Positions 41,968 through 54,379 of a stretch of DNA of 56,400 bases are shown here, piece by piece. This DNA is from Aquabacterium sp. Its GTDB lineage: Bacteria > Pseudomonadota > Gammaproteobacteria > Burkholderiales > Burkholderiaceae_C. The number at the start of each line of letters is the position of its first letter. The stretch's first letter is position 1. Made by a program: the position numbers and the translations under genes. The notes below the pieces were generated by a model that was not told the origin of the DNA, did no database searches, and saw only the letters and a list, made by a program, of their open reading frames with translations. The stretch covers positions 1 to 56,400 of the forward strand of contig JAKLLB010000015.1 of the NCBI GenBank assembly GCA_023150345.1, in the 5' to 3' direction.

Positions 41968-42165
41968 TCAGCAAGGCCTTGGATCGGCCGATGCAGCGGC
42001 ACCACGCAGCAACCAATCTCGCACGAGCGCAAATTCCCGGTAATGAACCTGGGGCTGCCCGTCTTCGGGCGGCCTGGCCTGCTTCAGTGCCTTGACCAGC
42101 GCACCCTTCTCGCAGTCACTGAGCAGATCTTCTTCCGGGTCGCTCCGCAGTTCGGGGGAGTTCAG
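41968..42165 (-). CDS. Possible 65-residue protein with a CTG start, last gene of the PspA/flotillin operon
   Basis: An open frame of 66 codons begins at CTG (42165-42163), overlapping the ATPase stop as CTGA, just as other genes here overlap by ATGA. It reads NSPELRSDPEEDLLSD, then EKGALVKALKQARPP, then QVHYREFALVRDWLL. The composition (acidic start, amphipathic helices, a Trp and no rare-codon runs) looks like real protein, and it has no ATG, GTG or TTG start upstream before a stop. GGAGG lies about 14 bases before the CTG. CTG starts are rare, so this could instead be the 3' remnant of a lost frame. No family recognised. Confidence 0.35.
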   Translation of the reverse strand: MNSPELRSDPEEDLLSDCEKGALVKALKQARPPEDGQPQVHYREFALVRDWLLRGAAASADPRPC

Positions 42166-45100
42166 GAGCTTGGTTTCTTGCCTCCGGCTGCCTTGGCGTC
42201 AAGCAGCTGGCCTAGGCGCTCGACTTGGTTCGAGACCGAGCGGTCCAGCATAAGTCGCTCCTCGGTGGCAGCGACCAGCGGCATGATGATCTTGCGGTAG
42301 GTCACCGCGATCTCCAGCACCGCCTGGGCTAGGCGCAGCGCCTCGTTGCCGCCGCGGTCGGCGCTGCTGTCGGGTGGCGGCGGCGCGTCGGGATCCGGCG
42401 GCGGCTGCAGCTCCCGCACCGCACGTGCCACCTCCAGCAGCGTGCTGGCGATGCGTGTGCTGCCGTCGGCCTCGGCCCCGCCGAGCTGGCGGCGTCGTAC
42501 GAAACCCTCGCAGATGGCGCGCCAGCGAGCGTCTTCCTCGGCGCTCGGTCGGCCCAGCAGCTGGGCCAACTTCAGCAGGTTCTCCTCCGCGCCGTTGGTC
42601 AGGGTCTGGGCCTCGCCGCGGTAATGGTCGCGCAGCAGCGCATCAAGCTCGGCATCGCTCATCAGTGGCGTGATCTTGCCCGCCAGCTTGACCATGTTGC
42701 GGTAGCTGCCCTGCAGCTTGAACGGTGGCTCCTCGCGGTAGGCGTCCTGCTGCGCGGCCGAGGCGATGTAGGCCAGGTTCACCTTCAGCAGCAGGTCGCG
42801 CGCGCGCGACAGGCGGCCCACCAGTGCCACCAGCTCCTCCAGCTCGGCAGCGCTGTAGGGGTGGGCGAATTCGCCGCCGGCCACGTCGCCGCCGCCGGCC
42901 AGCGCCACCAGCCGGTGCAGGTCTTTCGGTTCGCGTGACGACAGCGGCAGCAGCACCGGGTTGGCCGTCAGGCTGTTCTCCAGGTACGACAGCGCGAACA
43001 GCGCCTCGCGGCCCGACAGCACGTCGCCCAGGTTGTAGATGTCGGCGCGGTTGGCCAGCATGTCGGGGATCTTGAAGACATCGCCCGACTCGGTGTACGG
43101 GTTGCCGGCCATCACGATGGCGAAGCGCTTGCCGCGCAGGTCGAAGGTGCGCGGCTCGCCGTTCCACACGCCCTCGATGCGGCGCGTGGCGTCGGCCAGG
43201 GCAATGAACTTCTGCAGGAATTCGGGCGCGGTGTGCTGGATGTCGTCCAGGTACAGCATCACGTTGCTGCCCATGGCCAGGCCCAGGTTCAGCTTCTGCA
43301 GCTCCTGCCGCGCGGCGCTGTTGGGCGAGGTGGCCGGGTCGAGCGACGTGACCTCGTGGCCCAGCACCGGACAGTTGATGCGCACGAACACCAGGCCCAG
43401 GCGGTCGGCCACGTACTCCATCAGCGTGGTCTTGCCGTAACCCGGCGGCGAGATCAGCAGCAGCAGGCCCATGCGGTCGCTGCGCGCGGCGGCACCGGCG
43501 GCGCCCAGCTGCTTGGCCAGGTTGTCGCCCACCAGCGGCAGGTAGACCTCGTCGATCAGCCGGTTGCGCACGAAGGTGGACAGCGGCCGGGCCTGGAACT
43601 GCGCCAGCTTCAGGCGCTGCTTCTCGGCCGCCAGCAGCGCATGGCGGCGGCCGCGGAAGGCCTCGAAGCCGGGCTGCACCACCGAAGTGTGGTGGTTGAA
43701 GCGCTGCCAGAAGTCGTTCAGCTGCAGCAGCAGCGTGCCGTCGACGATGCGTGGATGCTCGCCCAGCAGCCCGGTCACCGTGGCCGACAGCTCGGCGTTG
43801 TGGCGCCGGCGTGGCGTGCGCAGCGCCAGCGCGGCGGCGGCTTCGTCCACCCACACCGCCGCGTCCTGGCCCAGGCCGGCCCGGCCGTCCGCGCTGCCGG
43901 CAAACGCGGCCACCCAGTCGCGCGCCAGGTGCCAGCGCTCCAGCGCTGGTGCAGCCTCCAGGTCGTGCGTCCACGCCGCCAGCCGGCCGCTGCGTTCCAG
44001 CGCGCGCTGCAGCGCCGCGGCCAGGTCGTCGGCCGGGCCGCTGATGACCCAGCCCTCGGCGATGCGCTCGTCGGCCAGCTGACGCGACAGGTACGCGGCC
44101 GCCTCGACGGCGAGGGCCGTGTCCGCGGCCGCCTTCGCGCCCAGCCAAGGGGCGGCAAAGGCCTGCAGCGCGTTGGCCAGTTCGGTGCCCAGTGCGGCCA
44201 GCGCGCTGCCGGCGCCGAAGGCCGCCTGCAGCTGCAGCGCCGTGCGGCTGCGGCGCTGCAGCGCAGTGCGCGCGGCCTCGTCCAGCCCGTGCTGCGCATA
44301 CAACAGGGCCAGCGTGCGCGCCGCGGGCCCATAGGCCAACAGGCCCGCGGCCTGCTGCAGTTCCGCCAGCGCCAGCAGCAGGCGCGTGGCGTCCTCGTCG
44401 TGCACGCCCTTCTGGTACCCCTCGTGGAAGCGTGCGGCAGCGGCTTGACGCAGCTCGTCGCGCAACACGGCGACGCCGTCGGCGCCGTCGCCGGAGGGCG
44501 ACTGCTGCAGCAACGCCCCCAGCGGCCCGCGGCCTTCCAGGGCGTCGCGCAGCAGCGTGCCGGCCAGGTACTCGGCGCGGTAGAGCGCCGGCGTCTCCGA
44601 CACCAGCGCCTGCTGCCAGTACGGCTTCAGCGCGTCCAGCTCGGCGTCCGCGGCCGGCGCCTGGTAGTCGGTGCCGGTGAGTTGCCAGGCCAGGCCCTCG
44701 CCGGCCGGCACCAGCGTCAGGTCCAGCGGCTGGCGGTTGATGGTGAAGGCGTGCGGGCCGAAGCGCAGCGTCTGGCCGTCGTCGGCCACCAGCTCCCGCT
44801 GGTCGCGCACGGCGCGCAGCGCGGCGTCGTGCGCGGCCTTCAGCCGGGTGGCGATGTCGTCGGCCGCCACCGCGGCGCCCAGTGTGCGCAGGTCGTCGAT
44901 CAGCTGGCGCAGCTTGCCCACCATCGGGTCGGCGGCAAAGTAGCTGTGCACCTGCGCCGGCTCACGCAGCGTGGCGATGCGGCGCGGCACGCCGTCGAGG
45001 ATGCGGCCGGCCGCTTCTGCCACCGCCTGGGCGCGGCGCTGGCGGGCTTCCAGCAGGTCTTGCCGGCGTGCGGCCAGCGCCTCGTAGACGGCTTCGCGCT

Positions 45101-47390
45101 GCTCGGCGATGTCGGCCAGGAACTCGTCGTGCTCCGCGAAGCGGCCTTCCAGTTCTTCCAGCTGCGCCAGCAGCCGGGTCAGCGCGTCGTCGCACTTCTC
45201 CGGTGTGTCGGCGAACTCCAGCGCGTTTTCCACCGCCTGCGAGAACAGCTTGAACTGCGCTCCGAACTCGGCCCGCGCCTCCGCCGCGCCCAGCGACTTG
45301 CGGCGCTGGCGCGCTTCGGCACGCTGCTTGTTGATCTCGGCGTACAGCGCCGAGATGCGGTCGAGGATGCGCGTGCGCACCACCGCATCACCACCGGGTA
45401 GGCCGCCCAGCTGCGCCGTCAGCAGGTCCAGGCCGGCGGCCTGCGCATCCAGCGTCTGCAGCAGCTGGCCCAGTGCCGGCGAGGTGCGCGCCTGCGCCAG
45501 CTCGGCCGCCAGCTGCTGCAGGCCGCGGTGCTGCGCGTCGAAGGCGTTGTCGGCGGCCAGGAACTGCAGCGCCCGTTCACCCACGCGCTGCTGCTCGGCG
45601 GCCAGCGTGGCGTCCATCGCGTCCAGCGCCGCGGTGTCGGCGTAGCGCAGGTCCTTCAGGCCGTGCAGCTGGCCGCGCTGTTCACGCAGGCGGTCCAGCG
45701 CGTGCACGAAGTCTTCCGGCTTGCGCCACAGCGTGCTGGCGATGTCGGTCAGCAGCGCACGCTGCGCGCGCGCTGCCTGTTCGATGGCCTGCGCCGTTTC
45801 GCGCCGGATCGCGTCGACCTTCTCGAACTCGGCCAGCGTGGACTTCGCGCCCTCGGCCACTGCGCGCAGGTCGGCGGCCAGGCCCTGCGCCTCGGGCTCG
45901 TCGAGCCAGAAGAAGGCATCGGCGATGCGGCCGGCCTGGCGGATCAGGTCTTCGTAGGCGGTGCGCGTGGGCGCCTGCTCGGCGAGTGCGCGGGCGATGC
46001 CGATCAGGTCCGAGATGCCGCGCACCAGCTCGGCATTGCCGATGCGGCCGAAGAAGCCCTCGACCGCGGGCTGCGCGTGCGCATGCTCCTCGTGCGCAAA
46101 CGGCGTGCGCCACAGCTGCATGCTGTGCACGCGCGTGGGTTCACCCCGCTCGGCCTGGAACACCAGCAGCCGGCCATCCGGGAAGCGCGCGTAGCCGTTG
46201 GCCAGGATGGGCGTGGCCAGCGTCTTGTCGATCAGGTTGTAGGTGAACAGCGCGTAGTGGCCGCTGCCGGGCTCGTAGAAGACGTAGAGCACGTCTTCGC
46301 CGTTGGGTGAGCGGATCAGGCGCTTGAAGCGCAGCGCGGCCACCACCTCGCCCGGCAGGTCGAAGCGCTTGTGCTCGCCCGACTGCAGGTAGTAGCCGCC
46401 GGGAAAGATGATGCCGTGATCTTCAGGCAGCTGCACGCAGGCGCTGCCGATGGCGTCGATGCGCTGCACCTGCTGCGTGCGCGGGTTGTAGACCAGGTGG
46501 CGCGTGGCCGTTTCGCGGTAGGGGCGGATGCGCAGCAGGATCAGCTGGCCCACGCGGGCGTACGCCACCTCGGCGTCGGCCAGCGACTGGTGCGCGTCGT
46601 CCACCGGCTCGCTGTAGATGCCCAGCCCCGTCTCGGTGTTGTTCTCGACCTTGACGGTGAGGTCGCCGCCCAGCGTCTCGACGAACACGGTGTCCAGCAC
46701 GTTGATGTGCGGATGCTTGCCGGTGATGTGGTCGTCGCGCGTGGCCACGGTCCATTCGAAGTCGTGGCTGGCGGGCAGCGCGATGTCGCGTTCGCCGCGG
46801 TTGTCCACGTAGCGCACGCTGCCGTCGGTGCCGATCTGCCAGCGGAACACGCGCAGGTCGGTCAGCTGCTGGCCGATCTGGAACGCCGCCAGCAGCTTGT
46901 CCGGCGTGACCCGCAGCTGCAGCAGCGTGGCGTGCTTGTAGTAGGCGTACAGCTCGCGGAAGTCGGAGGTGAAACGCGCATCGTCGAGGAAGCTGCCGGC
47001 CAGCGGCACCGCTTCCAGTTCGTCGGCGCCTTCGGCCAGGCGGTACAGCGCAAACACGTCGCCGGCCGCGGTTTCCTTGCGCAGCCCGATGAAGACGTTG
47101 TAGCCGAACAGCAGCTGCTCGCCGATGCGCACGATGTCGCGCGCGACGCAGTTGTTCTCGGTGCGCGCGCGGGTGCGCTTGAGCAGCGCCTGCTCGCTGC
47201 GCCCGAAGGCGGCCAGCCGCGCCTCGTTCAGCGCCTGCGCCTTGGTGTTCAGCGTCGCGCCCAGCGTGGCCAGGCGCGACTTCAGCAGCTCGTAGCTGCC
47301 GCTGTGCGCCACCATCTGGTCGGTGGCCGCGGCGGCGTCGGCAGGCACGCCGGCGGCGGCCGGGGCGAGCGCGTCACTCATGCCGTTCAC
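42162..47390 (-). CDS. Giant AAA+ ATPase with DUF3686 (DNA repair ATPase type)
   Basis: 1742 residues, one of the largest proteins in the window. The N-terminal 450 or so residues (LATLGATLNTKAQALNEAR onward) match the DUF3686 type that goes with a C-terminal AAA domain. A long helical middle (about 500-900) is coiled-coil with many Glu, Gln and Arg. The AAA module has Walker A SPPGYGKTTLM (about residue 1317), Walker B MLYLDDIQHT (about 1378) and a sensor region VMAGNPYTESGDVF (about 1431). The name DNA repair ATPase is a database label without proof of role. The start may be GTG at 47390, overlapping the zinc-ribbon stop, or ATG at 47381. Confidence 0.85.
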   Translation of the reverse strand: MNGMSDALAPAAAGVPADAAAATDQMVAHSGSYELLKSRLATLGATLNTKAQALNEARLAAFGRSEQALLKRTRARTENNCVARDIVRIGEQLLFGYNVFIGLRKETAAGDVFALYRLAEGADELEAVPLAGSFLDDARFTSDFRELYAYYKHATLLQLRVTPDKLLAAFQIGQQLTDLRVFRWQIGTDGSVRYVDNRGERDIALPASHDFEWTVATRDDHITGKHPHINVLDTVFVETLGGDLTVKVENNTETGLGIYSEPVDDAHQSLADAEVAYARVGQLILLRIRPYRETATRHLVYNPRTQQVQRIDAIGSACVQLPEDHGIIFPGGYYLQSGEHKRFDLPGEVVAALRFKRLIRSPNGEDVLYVFYEPGSGHYALFTYNLIDKTLATPILANGYARFPDGRLLVFQAERGEPTRVHSMQLWRTPFAHEEHAHAQPAVEGFFGRIGNAELVRGISDLIGIARALAEQAPTRTAYEDLIRQAGRIADAFFWLDEPEAQGLAADLRAVAEGAKSTLAEFEKVDAIRRETAQAIEQAARAQRALLTDIASTLWRKPEDFVHALDRLREQRGQLHGLKDLRYADTAALDAMDATLAAEQQRVGERALQFLAADNAFDAQHRGLQQLAAELAQARTSPALGQLLQTLDAQAAGLDLLTAQLGGLPGGDAVVRTRILDRISALYAEINKQRAEARQRRKSLGAAEARAEFGAQFKLFSQAVENALEFADTPEKCDDALTRLLAQLEELEGRFAEHDEFLADIAEQREAVYEALAARRQDLLEARQRRAQAVAEAAGRILDGVPRRIATLREPAQVHSYFAADPMVGKLRQLIDDLRTLGAAVAADDIATRLKAAHDAALRAVRDQRELVADDGQTLRFGPHAFTINRQPLDLTLVPAGEGLAWQLTGTDYQAPAADAELDALKPYWQQALVSETPALYRAEYLAGTLLRDALEGRGPLGALLQQSPSGDGADGVAVLRDELRQAAAARFHEGYQKGVHDEDATRLLLALAELQQAAGLLAYGPAARTLALLYAQHGLDEAARTALQRRSRTALQLQAAFGAGSALAALGTELANALQAFAAPWLGAKAAADTALAVEAAAYLSRQLADERIAEGWVISGPADDLAAALQRALERSGRLAAWTHDLEAAPALERWHLARDWVAAFAGSADGRAGLGQDAAVWVDEAAAALALRTPRRRHNAELSATVTGLLGEHPRIVDGTLLLQLNDFWQRFNHHTSVVQPGFEAFRGRRHALLAAEKQRLKLAQFQARPLSTFVRNRLIDEVYLPLVGDNLAKQLGAAGAAARSDRMGLLLLISPPGYGKTTLMEYVADRLGLVFVRINCPVLGHEVTSLDPATSPNSAARQELQKLNLGLAMGSNVMLYLDDIQHTAPEFLQKFIALADATRRIEGVWNGEPRTFDLRGKRFAIVMAGNPYTESGDVFKIPDMLANRADIYNLGDVLSGREALFALSYLENSLTANPVLLPLSSREPKDLHRLVALAGGGDVAGGEFAHPYSAAELEELVALVGRLSRARDLLLKVNLAYIASAAQQDAYREEPPFKLQGSYRNMVKLAGKITPLMSDAELDALLRDHYRGEAQTLTNGAEENLLKLAQLLGRPSAEEDARWRAICEGFVRRRQLGGAEADGSTRIASTLLEVARAVRELQPPPDPDAPPPPDSSADRGGNEALRLAQAVLEIAVTYRKIIMPLVAATEERLMLDRSVSNQVERLGQLLDAKAAGGKKPSS

Positions 47391-47944
47391 CAGCCCGCAC
47401 GCAGCAGCGCCAGCAATTCATCGCGCTGGGGCTGCTCGTCGAGCCAGGCGCGCATGCGGGCCAGTTCCTGCATGCGGTCGTCGCCGTGGCGTTCACGCAG
47501 CGCCACCTCGCGCCGGGCGCGCGCATCATCGGCCTGCAACTGGCGCTGCCAGCCGTCGGACAGCACTTCCAGCAGGCGCGTGGCCAGGCCGGCACGCTGC
47601 AACGCCTGCCACTCGCCGCGATCGAGCCAGACCTGCTGGCACGGGCCGCAGCGATCGACGCGGAAGTCGACCGGTGCGCCGATGCGCAGGCGCTGCATCA
47701 ACCGCGTGCAGCGCGGGCAATGGCGTGCGCCCTCGGCGGCGGAGGCCGTGGGCAGATCGACGCGGTCGCCGGCCAGCGACATCTCCGGCAAGGTCGCGCC
47801 ACGATCACGCCAGCGGCGGTAGTCGTCCAGCGCCAGCAGGCTGCCGCCGCAGTCGCGGCAGGTCGAAGCCGGCAACCCGGGCGCCAGCTCCAGCAACTGC
47901 CAACCCGAATCCGAACCGCAGGTGCAACGCAACGAGGTGGTCAT
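47387..47944 (-). CDS. Zinc-ribbon (TFIIB-type) small protein
   Basis: 185 residues. Two Cys pairs in each of two ribbons: CTCGS and CRDCGG in the first, and CPRC (HCPRCTRLM) and CGPC (DRCGPCQQVWLDRGE) in the second, the latter matching the zf-TFIIB pattern. The C-terminal third is helical and charged. The ATG at 47944 is preferred over the GTG at 47953, for the purine-rich GGTGGG before it. It lies between the flotillin and the ATPase genes and is the best candidate for a connecting subunit, but that is inference. Confidence 0.82.
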   Translation of the reverse strand: MTTSLRCTCGSDSGWQLLELAPGLPASTCRDCGGSLLALDDYRRWRDRGATLPEMSLAGDRVDLPTASAAEGARHCPRCTRLMQRLRIGAPVDFRVDRCGPCQQVWLDRGEWQALQRAGLATRLLEVLSDGWQRQLQADDARARREVALRERHGDDRMQELARMRAWLDEQPQRDELLALLRAGW

Positions 47945-47957
47945 GGCGCCCACCGCG

Positions 47958-50105
47958 TCACTGCGCCAGCCGCGGCTGCAACGCCTGCAGCGCCGACTGC
48001 AGCGCGGACTTCTGCGCGTCGGTGCCCTCCCGCATCACCTTGGCCACCAGGCCGGACACCGTCAGGTTCTGCAGCTCGCCCGCCGAGCCGCCGAGCGCGC
48101 CGACCAGGCCCTGCAGGTCGCCGACCATGTCGCGCTCGCCGCTCAGGTGGTCCTTGAGGCCCACCTGCAGCGTCTGGCTCTTGCCGATGACGCCGTCGAT
48201 GCCCTTGCCCAGCGCCAGCGCGCTGACGAAGCGCTCGAAGTAGTCGCCCTGGCCGCCGACGATGTCGATCTTGGCGTTGGCCATCGCGGTGCCCAGCACC
48301 TCGGCCTGTTCCTTGGCGATGGACTGCTGCGCGTCGATGCCCTTGAGCGTCTCGACGTGCGACTTCTCCAACCGCATGCGAAACTCCTCGTGCTCGCGCG
48401 TGTCGGTGCTCATCACCTTCATCGCCTCGAACTTGTCGCGCAGGCCCTTGGCCTCGGCCAGGAAGCGCGCCTCGATCGTCGCGGCCTCGGCCTGGCCGGC
48501 CTTCACCGTGGCATCGGCGTCGAGCAGGCGCACGTTGACATCGGCTTGGCCGAGCTTTTCCTTGCCCTCGGCCTCGGCGCCCATCTTCGCACGCAGGCCG
48601 GCGGCTTCGGCCGCGGCGCGCGCCTCGATCACCTGCGCCTCGGCCTGGCCCAGCTTCAGCGTGGCCTCGGCGCCAGCGGTGCGCACATGCACATCGGCCA
48701 TGCCCTGTTTCTCGGTCGCGTCGGCACTGACCATCATCACCTTGGCCGCGGCCAGGCCAGGCGCGGCGCTGATCGCTTCCACGCCCTCGGCTTCTCGCTT
48801 CTTCGCCTCGGCGGACTTCTCGGCCACCCTCAGACGCGCCTCGGCCAGCGTGATTTCCTCGGTGGCCAGGTGGCGCGCACGGCGTTCCTGCGCCTCGGCG
48901 GCCTTCACCGCCAGCAGCAGCTTTTCCTCGGCCTGGCCCTCGGCCATGATGATCACCGACTTCTTGGTGCGGTCGGCCTCGGCGGTGACACGCAGCTCCT
49001 TGATGGCTTCCTCCTGCTCGGCCACCGTGCGTTCGACGACGATGCGCTCGCGGATCACGTCGGCGATGGCCTTCTTCTGCACCTCGACCGCGCGGTCCTT
49101 GTCGATCTTCTGCAGCGTTACTTCCTTTTCTCGGTCGACGATCTCCAGCTCGCGCGCGCGGGTGACCTTCTCTTCCTCGATCGCCACCGCGCGCTTGCGG
49201 TTGTTCTCGGCCACTTCCTTCTCGCGCTGCACGTTTTCGTTTTGCACCGCGACGACTTGTTCCGACTGCAGGCGCGCCAGCTCGCTCTTGGCCTTTTCCT
49301 CGGCCTGGATCTTCAGCGTCTCGGCTTCTTCGCGGGCCCGCACGCTGGCCACTTCACGCGCCTGGCGGGCCTGCGCGTCGGCGGCCTGGCGTTCCAGCTC
49401 CAGCAAGGCCTCCTGCGTCTCGACGTTCTTCTTCTTGATCTGCATCTCCTCGTTGCGCTGCAGCTCGTTGGTGCGCACGTGTTCCACCGCCGTCAGCTCG
49501 GTGATCTTCTTGATGCCCTGCGAGTCGAGGATGTTGGTGCTGTCCAGCTTGGACAGAGGCGTCTGCTCGAGGTAGTCGATGGCCGCGTCCTCCAGGACGT
49601 AGCCGGACAGGTCGTCGCCGATCTGGGCGATGATCTCGTCGCGGAAGCGGTCGCGCGCGCCGTACAGGTCGACGAAGTCGAGCGACTTGCCCACCGTCTT
49701 CAGCGCCTCGGAGAACTTGGCCGAGAACAGGTCTTCCAGCGTCTCGTGGTTGGAGGCGCGTTCGCAACCCACTGCCTGCGCCACCTTCAGCACGTCTTCG
49801 GCGGTCTTGTTCACGCGCACGTAGAAGCGCACCTTGATATCGGCGCGGATGTTGTCCTGGCAGATCAGACCCTCGCGGCCGGAACGGTCGATCTCGATGG
49901 TCTTGACCGAGATGTCCATCAGCTCGGCCTTGTGGATGATCGGATAGACCATGCGACCGGTGAAGGTGACGTCGGGCTCGGCACGCAAGGTGTTCACGAT
50001 CAGCGCATAGCCCTGTTCGATCTTGCGGTAGAACTTCGCGAACATCGCGACGAGGCCTAGGATCAGGACAGCCAGCACGATGGCGGCAACGATCAGCGGT
50101 TCCAT
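47958..50105 (-). CDS. yqiK: Flotillin-like SPFH protein YqiK
   Basis: 715-residue membrane scaffold. One N-terminal membrane helix (about 5-25), then an SPFH/band 7 domain (KIEQGYALIVNTLRAEPDVTFTG to about residue 200), and a very long coiled coil of Glu/Ala repeats (EKEVAENNRKRAVAIEEEKV, AEAQVIEARAAAEAAGL). The C-terminal LQALQPRLAQ end is typical of YqiK. Flotillins collect in ordered membrane patches and support cell-envelope complexes. Start at 50105 has AGAGGG upstream. It follows yqiJ by 64 bases, the partner gene also in E. coli. Confidence 0.9.
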   Translation of the reverse strand: MEPLIVAAIVLAVLILGLVAMFAKFYRKIEQGYALIVNTLRAEPDVTFTGRMVYPIIHKAELMDISVKTIEIDRSGREGLICQDNIRADIKVRFYVRVNKTAEDVLKVAQAVGCERASNHETLEDLFSAKFSEALKTVGKSLDFVDLYGARDRFRDEIIAQIGDDLSGYVLEDAAIDYLEQTPLSKLDSTNILDSQGIKKITELTAVEHVRTNELQRNEEMQIKKKNVETQEALLELERQAADAQARQAREVASVRAREEAETLKIQAEEKAKSELARLQSEQVVAVQNENVQREKEVAENNRKRAVAIEEEKVTRARELEIVDREKEVTLQKIDKDRAVEVQKKAIADVIRERIVVERTVAEQEEAIKELRVTAEADRTKKSVIIMAEGQAEEKLLLAVKAAEAQERRARHLATEEITLAEARLRVAEKSAEAKKREAEGVEAISAAPGLAAAKVMMVSADATEKQGMADVHVRTAGAEATLKLGQAEAQVIEARAAAEAAGLRAKMGAEAEGKEKLGQADVNVRLLDADATVKAGQAEAATIEARFLAEAKGLRDKFEAMKVMSTDTREHEEFRMRLEKSHVETLKGIDAQQSIAKEQAEVLGTAMANAKIDIVGGQGDYFERFVSALALGKGIDGVIGKSQTLQVGLKDHLSGERDMVGDLQGLVGALGGSAGELQNLTVSGLVAKVMREGTDAQKSALQSALQALQPRLAQ

Positions 50106-50169
50106 CGATTTCCCTCTTGTATCGGTGATGGGATGGGGGAGCGAGTGCGGTCGGCGGCGAGCGTGCGTG

Positions 50170-50802
50170 CTAGTCAGGCACGATCAGGTAGCGCTGGCGT
50201 TCGCCGTCGTATTCGACGATGCGTGCGGCCGAACCCTTGGTCAGCCCGTTTGGGGTGTCGGCCCACACGCGGATGTTGAGGCTGGCGCCTCGCCGCGACA
50301 CCTCGGCCCGACCAACGCGCTGGTCGACCCGGCCAGTGAGCACCTTGCAGGCCAGCCCCACCAGCGCGGCATTGGAGATCGCTGCATGGGTGACAAACAG
50401 GCGGCGCAGCGGGCGGATGGTGCGGGCCGTGAGGGGCAAGGCCAGCGCCCCCGAGGCCAGCAGCACGACGCTACCGGCCAGCAACCCGAGCAAAGCGGTG
50501 GGCACCAGCGGAAGCAGCCACATGCCGGCCAGGCAGCTCAGCACCCAGGCATAGAGGACGATGAGGCTGATCGCCACCGAAAAGGGCACGCCGCTGAGGC
50601 CGAATGCCACCACGTAGCTGGCCAGCGTGGAGATGTTCTCGAGCTCGGCATCGGCCTGGACTTCGATGTCGAAATCCAGGCCCGAGTGTTCGAAATCGAC
50701 CAGGCCCGCGATCGCCAGCAACCAGTAGACGATCACGATGCCGAGCAGCGCCGTCCAAACCGCCGTGGGGTAGCTGACGCTGGTGTCGAGGAAATGGCCC
50801 AT
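50170..50802 (-). CDS. yqiJ: Membrane protein YqiJ with C-terminal OB-fold
   Basis: 210 residues. A membrane segment at about 15-38 (AVWTALLGIVIVYWLLAIAGLVDF), then helical spans near 70-125 and 126-150, ending in a beta-rich OB-type domain (VGRAEVSRRGASLNIRVWAD, SAARIVEYDGERQRYLIVPD), an NfeD-like arrangement often coded beside flotillins. The start at 50802 has GGGAGG eight bases upstream; the frame is open to 50877 without a site. It fits the usual YqiJ-YqiK pair, in which the OB domain is thought to dock on the flotillin. Confidence 0.85.
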   Translation of the reverse strand: MGHFLDTSVSYPTAVWTALLGIVIVYWLLAIAGLVDFEHSGLDFDIEVQADAELENISTLASYVVAFGLSGVPFSVAISLIVLYAWVLSCLAGMWLLPLVPTALLGLLAGSVVLLASGALALPLTARTIRPLRRLFVTHAAISNAALVGLACKVLTGRVDQRVGRAEVSRRGASLNIRVWADTPNGLTKGSAARIVEYDGERQRYLIVPD

Positions 50803-50860
50803 CCGTGTCGCCTCCCGGCCCGTTTTGTTCACGCACTCAAGTTGCGGTGCATTATGGGTG

Positions 50861-51211
50861 TCAGCCCGGACCGCCACGACCGAGCTTGCTGCCGCTGCTG
50901 GCGAAGCGCATCAGCTCGGCGGCCACCTGCTCCTTGATGCCCAGCCGGTCTTCGGGGTCCAGTCCGAAACGCGCTGCAAGCAGGAGGTAGTCCTCGGCAT
51001 TCAACGACACGGTAAGCCTGGGCCGAACTGGCTTGGTGGTGGTGGGCAGGTCCAGCAGGCGACGAATCTGGTCGGAGGTGGACAGGCGGTTGTGGAAGGC
51101 AGCGGTGCGCACCGCCTCGAGCACCGCCTGCTCCACGTCGAAAGCCACCTGGACTGCCCGAATTGCCTCGTCCGATCCCGACCAGCGCGCTGGCTTACGA
51201 CGAACGTTCAT
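50861..51211 (-). CDS. Small protein with two ribbon-helix-helix-like halves
   Basis: 116 residues, of no family I can name with certainty. First half: IRAVQVAFDVEQAVLEAV followed by NRLSTSDQIRRLLDL. Second half: PRLTVSLNAEDYLLLAARFG followed by GIKEQVAAELMRF. Each looks like a short strand, a helix, a loop, and a helix with hydrophobic pattern: a ribbon-helix-helix. Its ATG overlaps the pspA stop (ATGA). It may be a regulator of the operon or an adaptor; no binding partner can be read from sequence. Confidence 0.6.
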   Translation of the reverse strand: MNVRRKPARWSGSDEAIRAVQVAFDVEQAVLEAVRTAAFHNRLSTSDQIRRLLDLPTTTKPVRPRLTVSLNAEDYLLLAARFGLDPEDRLGIKEQVAAELMRFASSGSKLGRGGPG

Positions 51212-51918
51212 GTGCCCTCAGGCTTGGCACCGGCCCGGCGCGCCCGGATCCGGTCCATCACCTGCTGCCGGCGCACGACCTCGGGGCCAATGCCGGCATC
51301 GGCAAGCTTCTGGTCCAGGGCCCCGGCACCAAACTCCTGGGCCAGCTGTTCGCCAGCCTGCAGCCGGTCGGCCAGGTCTTCGTGGCGGCGGCGGATGCGC
51401 TCCAACGACTCGCGGGCGCTTGTAAGCCGGGAGCCCCCGCTGGCGATGTTGTCGGAGATCGACCGGGTGGCGCGGTATACGCTTTCTGTCGTGCGGGCGA
51501 TTTCGACCTCGCGTTCGTGCTCGCGCAGCCGCGCCTCGGCCGCCTGGATCAGCGCCTTGAGGCGCTGCACCTGTGCCCGGAAGATCTGCAGCGACCGGCT
51601 TTGCTCGGCCAGGGTCAGCTCAAGTTCTCCGACCTTGGCGGCCACCTCCTCCGCCAGGGCCTCCTGAGCCTTGTCCAGCGCCTCGACCGCCAGACCCTCG
51701 TAGCGATGGATCTCGCCCTGAAGGCGCTTGACTTCGCGTTCGGCCTGCATCTGCCTGGCCATCACGCCGGTGAGATCGGCCTTGGCCTGCTGCAGCGCCT
51801 GGCGCGCGTCATCGATCTCCTGGCTGTAGATCGTCGTGGCATTGGCATCCACGATGCTCTCGCTGATTTCTCGCGCACTGCCGCGCAGCAGCGTCACCAT
51901 CTTGCGGATCACCGACAT
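51208..51918 (-). CDS. PspA/IM30-family membrane-stress protein
   Basis: 236 residues, nearly all alpha-helical coiled coil. It begins MSVIRKMVTLLRG and continues with the PspA/Vipp1 pattern: ARQALQQAKADLTGVMARQMQAEREVKRL and ALEEEVAAKVGELE-like Glu/Ala heptads. It binds stressed inner membrane and assembles into rings or rods. Of two ATGs, 51918 is preferred, with GGAG six bases before it (51921 has only three). In E. coli the YjfJ relative also follows a DUF2170 gene (YjfI), the same order as here. There is no pspF, pspB or pspC nearby. Confidence 0.88.
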   Translation of the reverse strand: MSVIRKMVTLLRGSAREISESIVDANATTIYSQEIDDARQALQQAKADLTGVMARQMQAEREVKRLQGEIHRYEGLAVEALDKAQEALAEEVAAKVGELELTLAEQSRSLQIFRAQVQRLKALIQAAEARLREHEREVEIARTTESVYRATRSISDNIASGGSRLTSARESLERIRRRHEDLADRLQAGEQLAQEFGAGALDQKLADAGIGPEVVRRQQVMDRIRARRAGAKPEGT

Positions 51919-51929
51919 CATGGTCTCCT

Positions 51930-52346
51930 TCAGAGCAGGTAGTCGGACAGGGCGTCCAGCGCATCGAGCGCGTTATCGCTCAGCACGGCAATCTCGCGGG
52001 CGATCTCGTCGATGCTTGCGTCTCGCCTCAGTGCACCCAGCAGTACAAAGCGCTCTCCCACACGGCCGAACGAGGACAGCGGCACCGAGGGGTTGAGCTC
52101 CAACAAAGTGGCCATCAACTCGCCGCGCAGCTCCGGCCGCACCTCGTCGTCGGCCCACAGGTAGCACAGGCACAGCAACTGCGAGGGGGAGCTGGTAAGG
52201 AAGATCGGCAGCTCCAGCCTGCCTTCGATGCCGAGCTGCACGACAGGCACCTCGCCGGGAATCGGCTGCAGCTGTACGGATAGCCCACCCATGGCTGCCT
52301 GGACATGCTGCTCCAGGCCGCGCAGTTGTTCGTGCAAGGCGTTCAT
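51930..52346 (-). CDS. DUF2170-family protein (YjfI-like)
   Basis: 138 residues, soluble. The ELPIFLTSSPSQLLCLCYLW segment, the ELNPSVPLSSFGRVGERFVLLGAL segment and the C-terminal DNALDALDALSDYLL helix are the family pattern. First gene of the seven- or eight-gene operon, with its promoter just upstream. Start at 52346, with purine-rich GAGGGGAG directly before it; an earlier in-frame ATG at 52409 lies within the promoter. Function is unknown, but its genes go with PspA relatives. Confidence 0.8.
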   Translation of the reverse strand: MNALHEQLRGLEQHVQAAMGGLSVQLQPIPGEVPVVQLGIEGRLELPIFLTSSPSQLLCLCYLWADDEVRPELRGELMATLLELNPSVPLSSFGRVGERFVLLGALRRDASIDEIAREIAVLSDNALDALDALSDYLL

Positions 52347-52390
52347 TGCTCCCCTCGGTCGACGTCGACGCAGGACGGTCGACGAACCGA

Positions 52391-52419
52391 AGCTTATGTG
52401 TGCGGACATAACATGTCAA
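52391..52419 (-). promoter_or_regulatory. Promoter and palindrome before the DUF2170-PspA operon
   Basis: On the minus strand a perfect -35 TTGACA (52419-52414) stands 17 bases before a weaker -10 TAAGCT (52396-52391). The -35 overlaps the palindrome GACAT-GTT-ATGTC (52417-52405), a plausible operator. No sigma-54 box was found, unlike the psp operon of E. coli. Confidence 0.55.
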
Positions 52420-52563: not shown

Positions 52564-52917
52564 CTAGAGCAGCAGCAGTGCGAGTCCGGCTGCGGCAGGA
52601 ACCGCTTGAACGAACAGGATCCGCCTGCTCGCCGTGGCCGCGCCATACAGCCCTGCAACCAGCACGCACAGCAGGAAGAAGACCTTCACCGCGTGGCCGG
52701 CGTCGCCGAGCGTCAGCCCCCAGATGAGACCAGCGGCAAGAAAGCCGTTGTACAGGCCTTGATTCGCGGCGAGCACCTTGGTCTGCTCGGCGAACTCGGC
52801 GGTGAGTCCGAATGCCTTGCGCCCGGTTGGCGTCGTCCATAGAAACATCTCGAGCACGACGATGTAGACGTGGATCAGTGCCACGAGCGCGACGACGACG
52901 TTCGATGCGATGGCCAT
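52564..52917 (-). CDS. DUF1304 small membrane protein
   Basis: 117 residues with four predicted membrane helices (IASNVVVALVALIHVYIVVLEMF, the GLYNGFLAAGLIWGL region, VKVFFLLCVLVAGLYGAA, ILFVQAVPAAAGLALLLL). The family signature is LWTTPTGRKAFGL followed by ANQGLYNGFLAAGL. Function is unknown. It is on the same strand as the DUF2170 operon but upstream of that operon's promoter, so it is probably separate. The 217 bases between it and the DUF2170 start hold the promoter described and little else. Confidence 0.88.
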   Translation of the reverse strand: MAIASNVVVALVALIHVYIVVLEMFLWTTPTGRKAFGLTAEFAEQTKVLAANQGLYNGFLAAGLIWGLTLGDAGHAVKVFFLLCVLVAGLYGAATASRRILFVQAVPAAAGLALLLL

Positions 52918-52987: not shown

Positions 52988-54379
52988 TCAGCCGGGCTGC
53001 CAGGTCACGCTGTAGACGCAATCGGCACCCTCAAGATCCGTGATGTAGGCAAATGCCTGCATCTGGCCGCGTCGATCCATGGTGGCCAAGTAGAAGCTCT
53101 TGAGGTCTGGTTCGGTGCTGGGGCAGAGGACGACGCTGGAGTAAGGAAAGTACATGACCTCACCAGTTTCGTAGTACGTTGGACCGCCGTCGTAGTACCG
53201 GTTTCGCACACTGCCCTTGAATGCCATGGCGTAACCACCACCCACGACCATGCCTCGGGCAGTGATGTCCAGTTGCTCGGCGGCGTATTGCGTGATGAGG
53301 TAGGTGCCGCCGCCGTCCAGCCCGCGCAGATCGGCTTTCACTTCATCGAAGGCGAGCGTGAGGCCGCGCTCCTGGCCGTGGCTTTGGCCCCAGACGCGCT
53401 GGCGCCCCGTGGGCAGCACAAGATCGGCAACGGGTAGCGATGCAGCCGAGGTGGCGTACGCGCGTACGGTTTCGGACAAGGCGCTGGGCAGGCGCGGGCG
53501 GAAGTTGGAAAAGTTTCGCGCGTTGGGCTGCAGCGTCATCACAAGCCCGTCGCCCACCGGCAGCACATGGGCGACGAAGTCCATGCCGCGGATGCGCCGT
53601 GCGCCGGGCACGAAGACCATGGGCACGATCTGTGGGTATCCAATGGCACCCTCGAACACGCCGTCGCGCACCTGGGCCTGGGTCCAGGGATAGGTCCACT
53701 GCACCTCGTCGACGACGACCAGTCGGGTCATCGCGGTCAAGTCTGTGCGCTTGGCGAGTGTGTGCGCCACATTACCCGCCTGAGCGAAACGCGGATCGTT
53801 CCAACCCGACAGCACCTGCGCAGACCATGAGCCGGATCCGCGGGTGGCGGCGAGGAACTCGGGCGTGAAGCGCCAGCCATCGACCGCGATCACGGTGCGG
53901 CGCACGCTCTCGGTCATGGCCGCTTCGACCGCGGCGTTGGTCGGCCCCGGGTGCTGGCGCTGTATCTCGGCGAGCGTCTCTCCGCGGGCAGCGGGCGCCA
54001 GCGTCGAAGCGAACGAGACCTCGAGCGCGGGCAGGTAGAGGCGGTCGTAATGCCAGCCTCCATCCGGCGCCGACACGCCGGCGACAGCCGCATCGCGGCT
54101 GCGAATGAACAGCGCATCGAGTTCCGCAGGCGTCAGTTGCCCGGTGGACGCACTGCCGGGCTGGTGCGTGGACTGCGCAAACTCCGCCAGGGTCATGGCA
54201 CCTTCGACAGGCGGGGCACTGGCCACGGCGCGGTTCGAAGCGGTGGGCTCGTCGTCGGAGCCCCCGCAGGCGCCCAGCACCAGCAGCGCCGACAGCGCGA
54301 TTGCGGTGGAGGCACGGCTGCGCGCCACACGGCGACTCGCACCGGGGCGCAACAACTGGGTGGATGCAGGCCGGGTCAT
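52988..54379 (-). CDS. Lipoprotein with a diverged serpin-like fold (tentative)
   Basis: 463 residues. A long signal peptide ends in the lipobox LVLGAC, with Cys38 as the lipid site. The mature part resembles serpins in segment order: [17 protein letters not shown], then [18 protein letters not shown] (serpin VNAIYFKGKW region), then [33 protein letters not shown] (the M-M / LPY region), then [17 protein letters not shown], and [16 protein letters not shown] near the hinge of the reactive loop. The classic hinge EGTEAAA is not kept, so inhibition may be lost. This is my own pattern match and needs a profile search. Convergence is not involved: it diverges from rimO. Confidence 0.5.

What the first reader, a model, noticed from the sequence alone, without database searches (positions are those of the whole stretch)
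41968..52419. Large PspA-flotillin-AAA ATPase operon, candidate membrane-stress machine
Seven or eight minus-strand genes run from one promoter: DUF2170, PspA, a small two-RHH-like protein, YqiJ, YqiK, a zinc ribbon and a 1742-residue DUF3686/AAA ATPase. Known relatives (YjfI-YjfJ and YqiJ-YqiK of E. coli) are separate there; here both sets are joined to an AAA+ motor with a long coiled coil. Inference: PspA and flotillin hold the membrane, and the motor remodels the assembly. The DNA-repair label on such ATPases may be misleading.
Basis: partly seen in the sequence, partly recalled or inferred. Interest (0 to 1): 0.75.

Follow-up and report, generated by a model that had tools for sequence, protein, structure and literature searches.

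The report
Membrane-stress operon with dedicated DNA switch
Seven neighbouring genes form a membrane-protection operon of a kind already described by others, but the small unstudied protein inside it looks like the switch: a matching DNA tag sits on the operon's promoter, and in related bacteria the same tag marks other membrane-protection genes.

Summary
The operon is real: DUF2170, PspA, a small protein (P0003), YqiJ-like, divergent flotillin-like, zinc ribbon and a 1742-residue DUF3686 AAA+ ATPase, minus strand, about 52346-42162. The combination is in print (Ravi 2024). The near-constant unit is YqiJ-flotillin-ATPase (71 of 72 loci with enough flank); DUF2170+PspA is optional (34 of 68), and 5 of 29 ATPase genomes show no PspA. 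So 'PspA and ATPase always together' fails. The AAA domain resembles MoxR-type CbbQ/NorQ.

New here: P0003 goes with a palindrome, GACAT-N3-ATGTC, on the -35 box of the operon promoter: exact in 29 of 29 loci with P0003, 0 of 6 with DUF2170 only, 1 of 36 without DUF2170; one copy in the window's genome. In another order of the class, one form of it is in 60 of 76 genomes with a P0003 relative and 13 of 171 without. Of 30 further loci with that form, 15 adjoin PspA, SPFH or NfeD genes, 4 NhaA, 2 M48 peptidases; 0 of 12 control sites adjoin any of the first group. Best reading: P0003 is the operon's autorepressor and, elsewhere, controls an inner-membrane-integrity regulon. Binding is untested.

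The parts
52405..52417 (.). palindrome GACAT-N3-ATGTC (P1), proposed operator of P0003
   Evidence: exact in 29 of 29 loci with DUF2170 and a P0003-type gene; only exact copy in the 4.58-Mb genome, backward control 0
52391..52419 (-). sigma-70-like promoter: -35 TTGACA 52419-52414 (overlaps P1), 17-nt spacer, weak -10 TAAGCT 52396-52391
   Evidence: TTGACA exact in 29 of 29 loci, -10 at least 4 of 6 in 27 of 29 (the window itself 3 of 6); the tool's stricter scan found none
51930..52346 (-). DUF2170 / YjfI / BacA-type (CesT/Tir-like) gene, start revised
   Evidence: Pfam PF09938 E 2.8e-24; start
51208..51921 (-). PspA; the only PspA family match in this genome assembly
   Evidence: PF04012 E 1.4e-34
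50861..51211 (-). P0003, 116 aa, proposed RHH-type autoregulator
50170..50877 (-). YqiJ-like membrane protein (GTG start uncertain)
   Evidence: profile of P0004 hits a gene annotated DUF1449
47958..50105 (-). divergent SPFH/flotillin-like protein, 715 aa
   Evidence: 45% identical to a pQBR103 protein with Band_7 E 9e-11; no direct Pfam hit
47387..47953 (-). zinc-ribbon protein, optional member
   Evidence: PF13453 E 3.3e-8; on the operon strand in 26 of 68 loci
42162..47390 (-). DUF3686 AAA+ ATPase, 1742 aa: DUF3686 47-494, helical region, AAA about 1270-1615

Best explanation
A phage-shock-like inner-membrane protection operon. Core (inferred mechanism): flotillin and YqiJ build a membrane scaffold that a MoxR-type AAA+ motor, reaching out through its long helical region, remodels. 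PspA plus its CesT-like partner DUF2170 is an add-on for damaged membrane. Control (strongest new point): P0003 is an RHH-type repressor that binds GACAT-N3-ATGTC on the -35 box and shuts the operon; stress probably relieves it through DUF2170/PspA partner switching. In this genome P0003 appears to control only its own operon; in another order of the class its relatives appear to control a regulon of PspA-PspC, SPFH/NfeD, NhaA and M48-peptidase genes. Shown: gene order, palindrome, its overlap with -35, its co-occurrence with P0003 and its positions. Inferred: binding, repression, the DUF2170 switch, motor action.
For: Core: YqiJ then flotillin before the ATPase in 71 of 72 loci with at least 3.5 kb upstream, across Burkholderiales, Myxococcota and Streptomyces; ATPase residues conserved, MoxR-like fold. 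Switch: P1 exact in 29/29 loci with P0003, 0/6 with DUF2170 only, 1/36 without DUF2170, 0 exact (10 with one mismatch) elsewhere in 1.59 Mb; -35 overlap 29/29 (110); single site in own genome. P0003 relatives in 13 of 369 class genomes, all 13 among the 27 with DUF2170. Dyad loci fetched from that sample: exact P1 in 6 of 9 with a P0003 type in the stretch, 1 of 15 without (that one is a truncated contig of a genome that has P0003). GACATAATATGTC in 60/76 genomes with P0003 type against 13/171 without, 276 against 17 sites, backward control 3 hits over the 247. Trans targets: 15 of 30 annotated further loci adjoin PspA/SPFH/NfeD, 4 NhaA, 2 M48; 0 of 12 chosen other-centre controls adjoin PspA/SPFH/NfeD.
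Against: No binding, expression or knockout data. The RHH assignment is weak: no Pfam hit, model pLDDT 69.9 (60), no significant Foldseek hit, no internal repeat by hhalign, no PDB relative by profile (best E 0.036, 106). Genomes are related, so the Fisher p values overstate independence. 16 of 76 P0003 genomes lack GACATAATATGTC (all one genus; 3 of 3 of them fetched have P1 with another centre), and 13 of 171 without P0003 have it. G075, G203 and G284 have P0003 but only a degenerate palindrome at DUF2170 (81), G179 and G732 a one-mismatch form. 9 of the 30 trans loci have no clear membrane-stress gene. The window's -10 is poor (3 of 6). A paFlo3 deletion in P. aeruginosa gave only about 20% less biofilm.
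Confidence: 0.66

Rival explanations
1. P1 is read by another conserved regulator; P0003 has some other role in the operon.
For: P0003 has no recognised domain; its fold is only weakly matched; 13 of 171 genomes without P0003 have the GACATAATATGTC form.
Against: P1 follows P0003 relatives genome by genome: 60/76 against 13/171. In six loci DUF2170 has an N-terminal extension instead of a P0003 neighbour, and the palindrome there is TTACATGTAA, exact in 4 of 6 and within one mismatch in 6 of 6. In G139, G515 and G233 P1 marks genes unlinked in the assembly to the P0003 gene.
Confidence: 0.17
2. P0003 activates rather than represses, for instance as a recruiter at P1.
For: Some operons have a second P1 site 15-39 bp away.
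Against: P1 overlaps the -35 hexamer itself in 29 of 29 loci, the usual layout of repression (recalled).
Confidence: 0.12
3. The flotillin-YqiJ-ATPase core and the PspA dyad are two independent machines sharing a promoter.
For: Core stands without dyad in 33 of 68 loci and in 5 of 29 ATPase genomes without any PspA match; 17 of 27 class genomes with DUF2170 have no ATPase match.
Against: All 10 class genomes with the ATPase also have DUF2170, 4 of them not adjacent in the assembly; in G139 the unlinked core carries the same palindrome as the dyad.
Confidence: 0.35
4. DNA-repair ATPase, as the Pfam description and several records label it.
For: Label only.
Against: Neighbours are membrane scaffold-type proteins in 71 of 72 loci; AAA domain closest to MoxR-type remodellers, though RuvB is also among Foldseek's rows.
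Confidence: 0.03
5. Anti-phage defence system.
For: Scattered distribution (10 of 369) and some plasmid-borne copies.
Against: PADLOC gives only weak coiled-coil and P-loop similarities; P1 sites mark ordinary membrane genes.
Confidence: 0.04

Closest known systems
CesT/Tir-PspA group-1 operon of Ravi et al. 2024 (PMC11237479; section 19 read in full, other passages)
   Same: CesT/Tir (DUF2170)-PspA with YqiJ, TM-band-7-flotillin protein and AAA+ ATPase with coiled coil; abbreviated forms without PspA also described there
   Different: That section names neither a P0003-type gene nor a zinc ribbon for this group; the terms operator, palindrom and NhaA have 0 occurrences in its main text
bac cluster of P. 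aeruginosa (PMC2587700 passages; PMC10948618 passages and section 3.6; PMC13086221 passages)
   Same: DUF2170 (BacA), PspA (BacB), short NfeD and SPFH genes in one cluster; BacA crystal structure is CesT-like
   Different: The named four-gene cluster has no ATPase and no P0003-type gene; a sigma-54 site is proposed there
RHH gene at the end of CesT/Tir-PspA-spermidine synthase operons (Ravi group 2)
   Same: Probably the same family as P0003 (inference): in G139 the P0003 relative follows DUF350, spermine synthase, DUF2170, PspA and DUF4178-like genes
   Different: There only its presence is noted; no operator or regulon is given in that section
Canonical Psp system (PspF/sigma-54)
   Same: PspA and the membrane-stress theme; PspA-PspC operons of four genomes carry P1
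   Different: Promoter here is sigma-70-like with a palindrome on -35; no GAFTGA-type activator in the four fetched 6-7 kb PspA-PspC regions

Membership tests
CesT/Tir-PspA-flotillin-AAA operon (Ravi group 1) | DUF2170-PspA dyad joined to YqiJ, flotillin and AAA+ ATPase | tested here: met
   (YqiJ and flotillin through relatives)
CesT/Tir-PspA-flotillin-AAA operon (Ravi group 1) | N-terminal beta-propeller in the ATPase | not tested
   only residues 543-1742 were modelled
Canonical Psp system | sigma-54 promoter with PspF | tested here: not met
   no -24/-12 match upstream of the first gene in 71 of 71 loci scanned, window included, at the threshold used; sigma-70-like -35 instead
SPFH/flotillin | Band_7/SPFH domain in P0005 | tested here: inconclusive
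   no direct Pfam hit; relative at 45% identity has Band_7 E 9e-11, another a sub-threshold Flot hit E 0.021; two further relatives no SPFH hit
NfeD/YqiJ | YqiJ_N/YqiJ_OB domains in P0004 | tested here: inconclusive
   no Pfam hit for P0004 or three relatives; its profile hits a gene annotated DUF1449
MoxR-type AAA+ (CbbQ/NorQ) | conserved AAA motifs and MoxR-like fold | tested here: met
MoxR-type AAA+ (CbbQ/NorQ) | VWA-domain partner protein (recalled as typical) | not tested
   no VWA hit among the seven operon proteins, but neighbours and the rest of the genome were not searched
Ribbon-helix-helix regulators | RHH fold in P0003 | tested here: inconclusive
Ribbon-helix-helix regulators | palindrome at own promoter | tested here: met
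Ribbon-helix-helix regulators | DNA binding and repression | not testable with these tools
   needs EMSA and a deletion mutant

The most novel reading that the evidence does not exclude
P0003 founds a family of membrane-stress regulators that stands in for PspF/sigma-54: an RHH repressor of GACAT-N3-ATGTC, held or released by the CesT-like DUF2170 protein, that controls one inner-membrane-integrity regulon (DUF2170-PspA, PspA-PspC, flotillin/stomatin-NfeD, NhaA, M48 peptidase) in many bacteria of the class, reduced to one autoregulated operon in the window's genome.
Probability: 0.6. Interest if true: 0.78.

Novelty: new variant of a known kind. Interest (0 to 1): 0.64.

Why it matters
What senses membrane damage for PspA and SPFH/flotillin systems outside the PspF model is largely open (my knowledge). 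One regulator-site pair that joins PspA, flotillin/NfeD, Na+/H+ antiport and membrane proteolysis would put separately studied systems in one response, gives a direct binding test, and offers a reason for the repeated pairing of PspA with a CesT-like protein. It also turns a family labelled 'DNA repair ATPase' into a candidate motor for flotillin scaffolds.

Tried and rejected
Sigma-54 promoter: nothing at the threshold in 71 of 71 loci. A second palindrome in the window, TTATGT-N6-ACATAA, has its core in only 3 of 35 DUF2170 loci, so P1 was preferred. A one-mismatch P1 search of the window alone has no power (expected 1.0). Internal repeat in P0003: hhalign of the two halves found none. Foldseek for P0003: no E below 0.001. 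PADLOC: only weak coiled-coil or P-loop matches. PDB sequence search with the flotillin: none. Distance-matrix correlations of the operon proteins are high (0.93-0.98) but have no control for shared ancestry and are not used. DUF3686 occurs in 0 held papers; searches for RHH with PspA, nhaA, htpX, spermidine synthase, and for YjfI with repressor, gave listings (the best 8-10 shown where more were found) in which nothing describes this regulator; only Ravi 2024 was opened for this. The place list was cut, so sites of G581, G602, G533, G513 and G522 were not annotated; 4 of 34 listed trans loci and many other-centre sites were not fetched either.

Full report
Observation. Seven minus-strand genes occupy about 52346-42162. 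Pfam names DUF2170, PspA, a zinc ribbon and DUF3686/DUF7902/AAA. P0003, P0004 and P0005 have no Pfam hit. P0005 is placed as a divergent SPFH protein because a 45%-identical plasmid relative has Band_7 at E 9e-11 (three other relatives tested have no hit over the cut-off), and P0004 as YqiJ-like because its profile hits a gene annotated DUF1449 in the same place. Neighbouring genes overlap by up to 17 bp or are at most 64 bp apart. No eighth gene was supported. DUF2170 most likely starts at 52346.

Conservation of the order. A scan of one genome for each of 84,980 species with the ATPase gave 79 pattern matches, 59 of them relatives, in Burkholderiales and other betaproteobacterial groups, Myxococcota and Streptomyces. 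With 14 loci from sampled genomes and the window, 74 loci were mapped. Many are close relatives (Variovorax, Myxococcus, Corallococcus). Of 72 with at least 3.5 kb upstream, 71 have YqiJ then flotillin before the ATPase; the exception is L018. Of 68 with at least 6 kb, 34 have DUF2170 and PspA, one has DUF2170 and the P0003 type but no PspA (L024), and 33 have neither. The ATPase is uncommon: 10 of 369 class genomes, 6 of 100 family genomes, 0 of 14 named controls; the one other genome of the same genus lacks it. All 10 class genomes with it also have DUF2170 (27 of 369), four of them not adjacent in the assembly. Against a strict pairing, 22 of 28 tested ATPase genomes have no DUF2170 (the 28 were picked mainly because no dyad lay beside the ATPase), and 5 of 29 ATPase genomes have no PspA (which also held the ATPase-less G379; two of the five are MAGs). 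Twelve of 72,556 plasmid records hold the ATPase, some of chromosome size; on pQBR103 it closes a run YjfI-PspA-rhomboid-DUF2491-DUF350-DUF1190-glutathionylspermidine synthase-YqiJ position-SPFH-ATPase.

The switch. Upstream of DUF2170 lies TTGACATGTTATGTC: the palindrome GACAT-N3-ATGTC (P1) on a -35 hexamer. P1 is exact in 29 of 29 loci with DUF2170 and a P0003-type gene, 0 of 6 with DUF2170 only, 1 of 36 without DUF2170, and 0 times (10 times with one mismatch) elsewhere in 1.59 Mb of these loci. TTGACA overlaps it in 29 of 29; a -10 of at least 4 of 6 follows in 27 of 29 (the window is one of the two misses). It is the only exact P1 in the 4.58-Mb genome. In the six loci without P0003, DUF2170 has an N-terminal extension with the motif SAxYQR-x-x-R-x-RLR-x-x-G-x-VKKE (two pieces tested against Pfam gave no hit over the cut-off, best MazE-like E 0.054) and the palindrome is TTACATGTAA instead (exact 4 of 6, one mismatch or fewer 6 of 6).

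Independent test. P0003 relatives occur in 13 of 369 class genomes, all with DUF2170. Of 24 DUF2170 loci fetched from that sample apart from the ATPase loci, exact P1 is in 6 of 9 with a P0003 type in the fetched stretch (G139, G052, G240, G077, G307, G197) and 1 of 15 without; that one is a truncated contig of G179, which has P0003 on another contig with a one-mismatch P1. G075 and G203 have P0003 and only a CCCATAATATGTC/CCCATATTATGTC form, G284 (P0003 unlinked) the former. In the order of G139, P0003 relatives are in 76 of 247 genomes. GACATAATATGTC occurs in 60 of those 76 and 13 of the other 171 (276 against 17 sites; backward pattern 3 hits over the 247) (the per-genome lists typed over by hand; Fisher p 1.6e-29, not corrected for kinship). 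The 16 misses are one genus; 3 of 3 dyad regions fetched from them, and one from a fourth genome of the genus, carry exact P1 with centre TTA/TAA. G732 has a one-mismatch form at its dyad, and the P0003 gene of G515 lies apart from any dyad or P1. G603, one of the 13, is 88% complete and carries a DUF2170-PspA dyad with two P1 sites on a 4.4-kb contig.

Regulon. In 10 genomes (G139, G052, G240, G732, G626, G613, G639, G529, G570, G515) the listings show 34 loci with an ATT/AAT-centred P1 away from the dyad promoter; 30 were examined. 15 adjoin PspA, SPFH or NfeD genes: PspA-PspC in G139, G626, G613, G639; NfeD-SPFH-SPFH in G139, G626, G639, G529; an SPFH gene in G139, G613, G570; YqiJ-flotillin in G139, G570, G515; a PspA of the window's type in G515. 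Four adjoin NhaA (G626, G613, G639, G515) and two an M48 peptidase (G529, G515). Nine have other or unclear neighbours (for L023): the start of the dyad's own larger operon in G139, a TraB-family gene in G052, CutA/DsbD in G240, a 357-aa ORF in G732, four in G529 (98-aa protein, M16 peptidase, a hydrolase, a 77-aa ORF) and one in G570. In G233 a TTT-centred P1 lies about 120 bp before PspA, on another contig than P0003. Of 12 other-centre sites chosen as control, none adjoins PspA/SPFH/NfeD and 7 lie inside ORFs; of the 23 ATT/AAT loci in the same one search do, three of these in ORFs under 70 codons. 15/30 against 0/12 gives p 0.003. Six sites with AAA or AAC centres gave Tim44-like (two), NhaA, carbonic anhydrase, Dus and an esterase. 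The four PspA-PspC regions show no GAFTGA-type activator.

Novelty. The operon type is published by comparative genomics (PMC11237479: section 19 in full and passages), and the bac cluster has phenotypes (PMC2587700: passages; PMC10948618: passages and section 3.6; PMC13086221: passages, paFlo3 mutant about 20% less biofilm). The regulator-site pair and the regulon were not found in the listings of searches.

Noticed in passing
window 52567-52917 (-): A DUF1304 gene (Pfam E 4.4e-45) lies just upstream of the operon on the same strand, ending about 150 bp before the palindrome.
   Followed up: partly
L019-L022, L026, L027; also L132, L156, L120: DUF2170 genes with an N-terminal extension (or, in the last three, long ORFs not read in detail) carry another promoter palindrome, TTACATGTAA, often twice. 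The sigma-54 site proposed for P. aeruginosa bacA deserves a new look in this light.
   Followed up: partly
L120 (pQBR103 83437-106326): A plasmid carries a ten-gene run that joins the polyamine-type and flotillin-ATPase-type PspA operons.
   Followed up: no
L054: A contig titled Comamonas sp. KCTC 72670, in a 9-Mb genome, carries a myxobacterial-type ATPase locus; the organism name may be wrong.
   Followed up: no
L024: DUF2170 and a P0003-type gene with two tandem P1 sites stand before YqiJ-flotillin-ATPase without PspA, so P0003 may partner DUF2170 rather than PspA.
   Followed up: partly
L187, L189, L222, L234, L235, L238, L239, L243: P1 sites beside genes of unclear link to membrane stress (TraB family, CutA/DsbD, M16 peptidase, hydrolases, unknown ORFs): possible new targets or chance.
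   Followed up: partly
window 52988-54379 (-): A 463-aa lipoprotein-like ORF without any Pfam family and without a match in the 73 other mapped loci.
   Followed up: no
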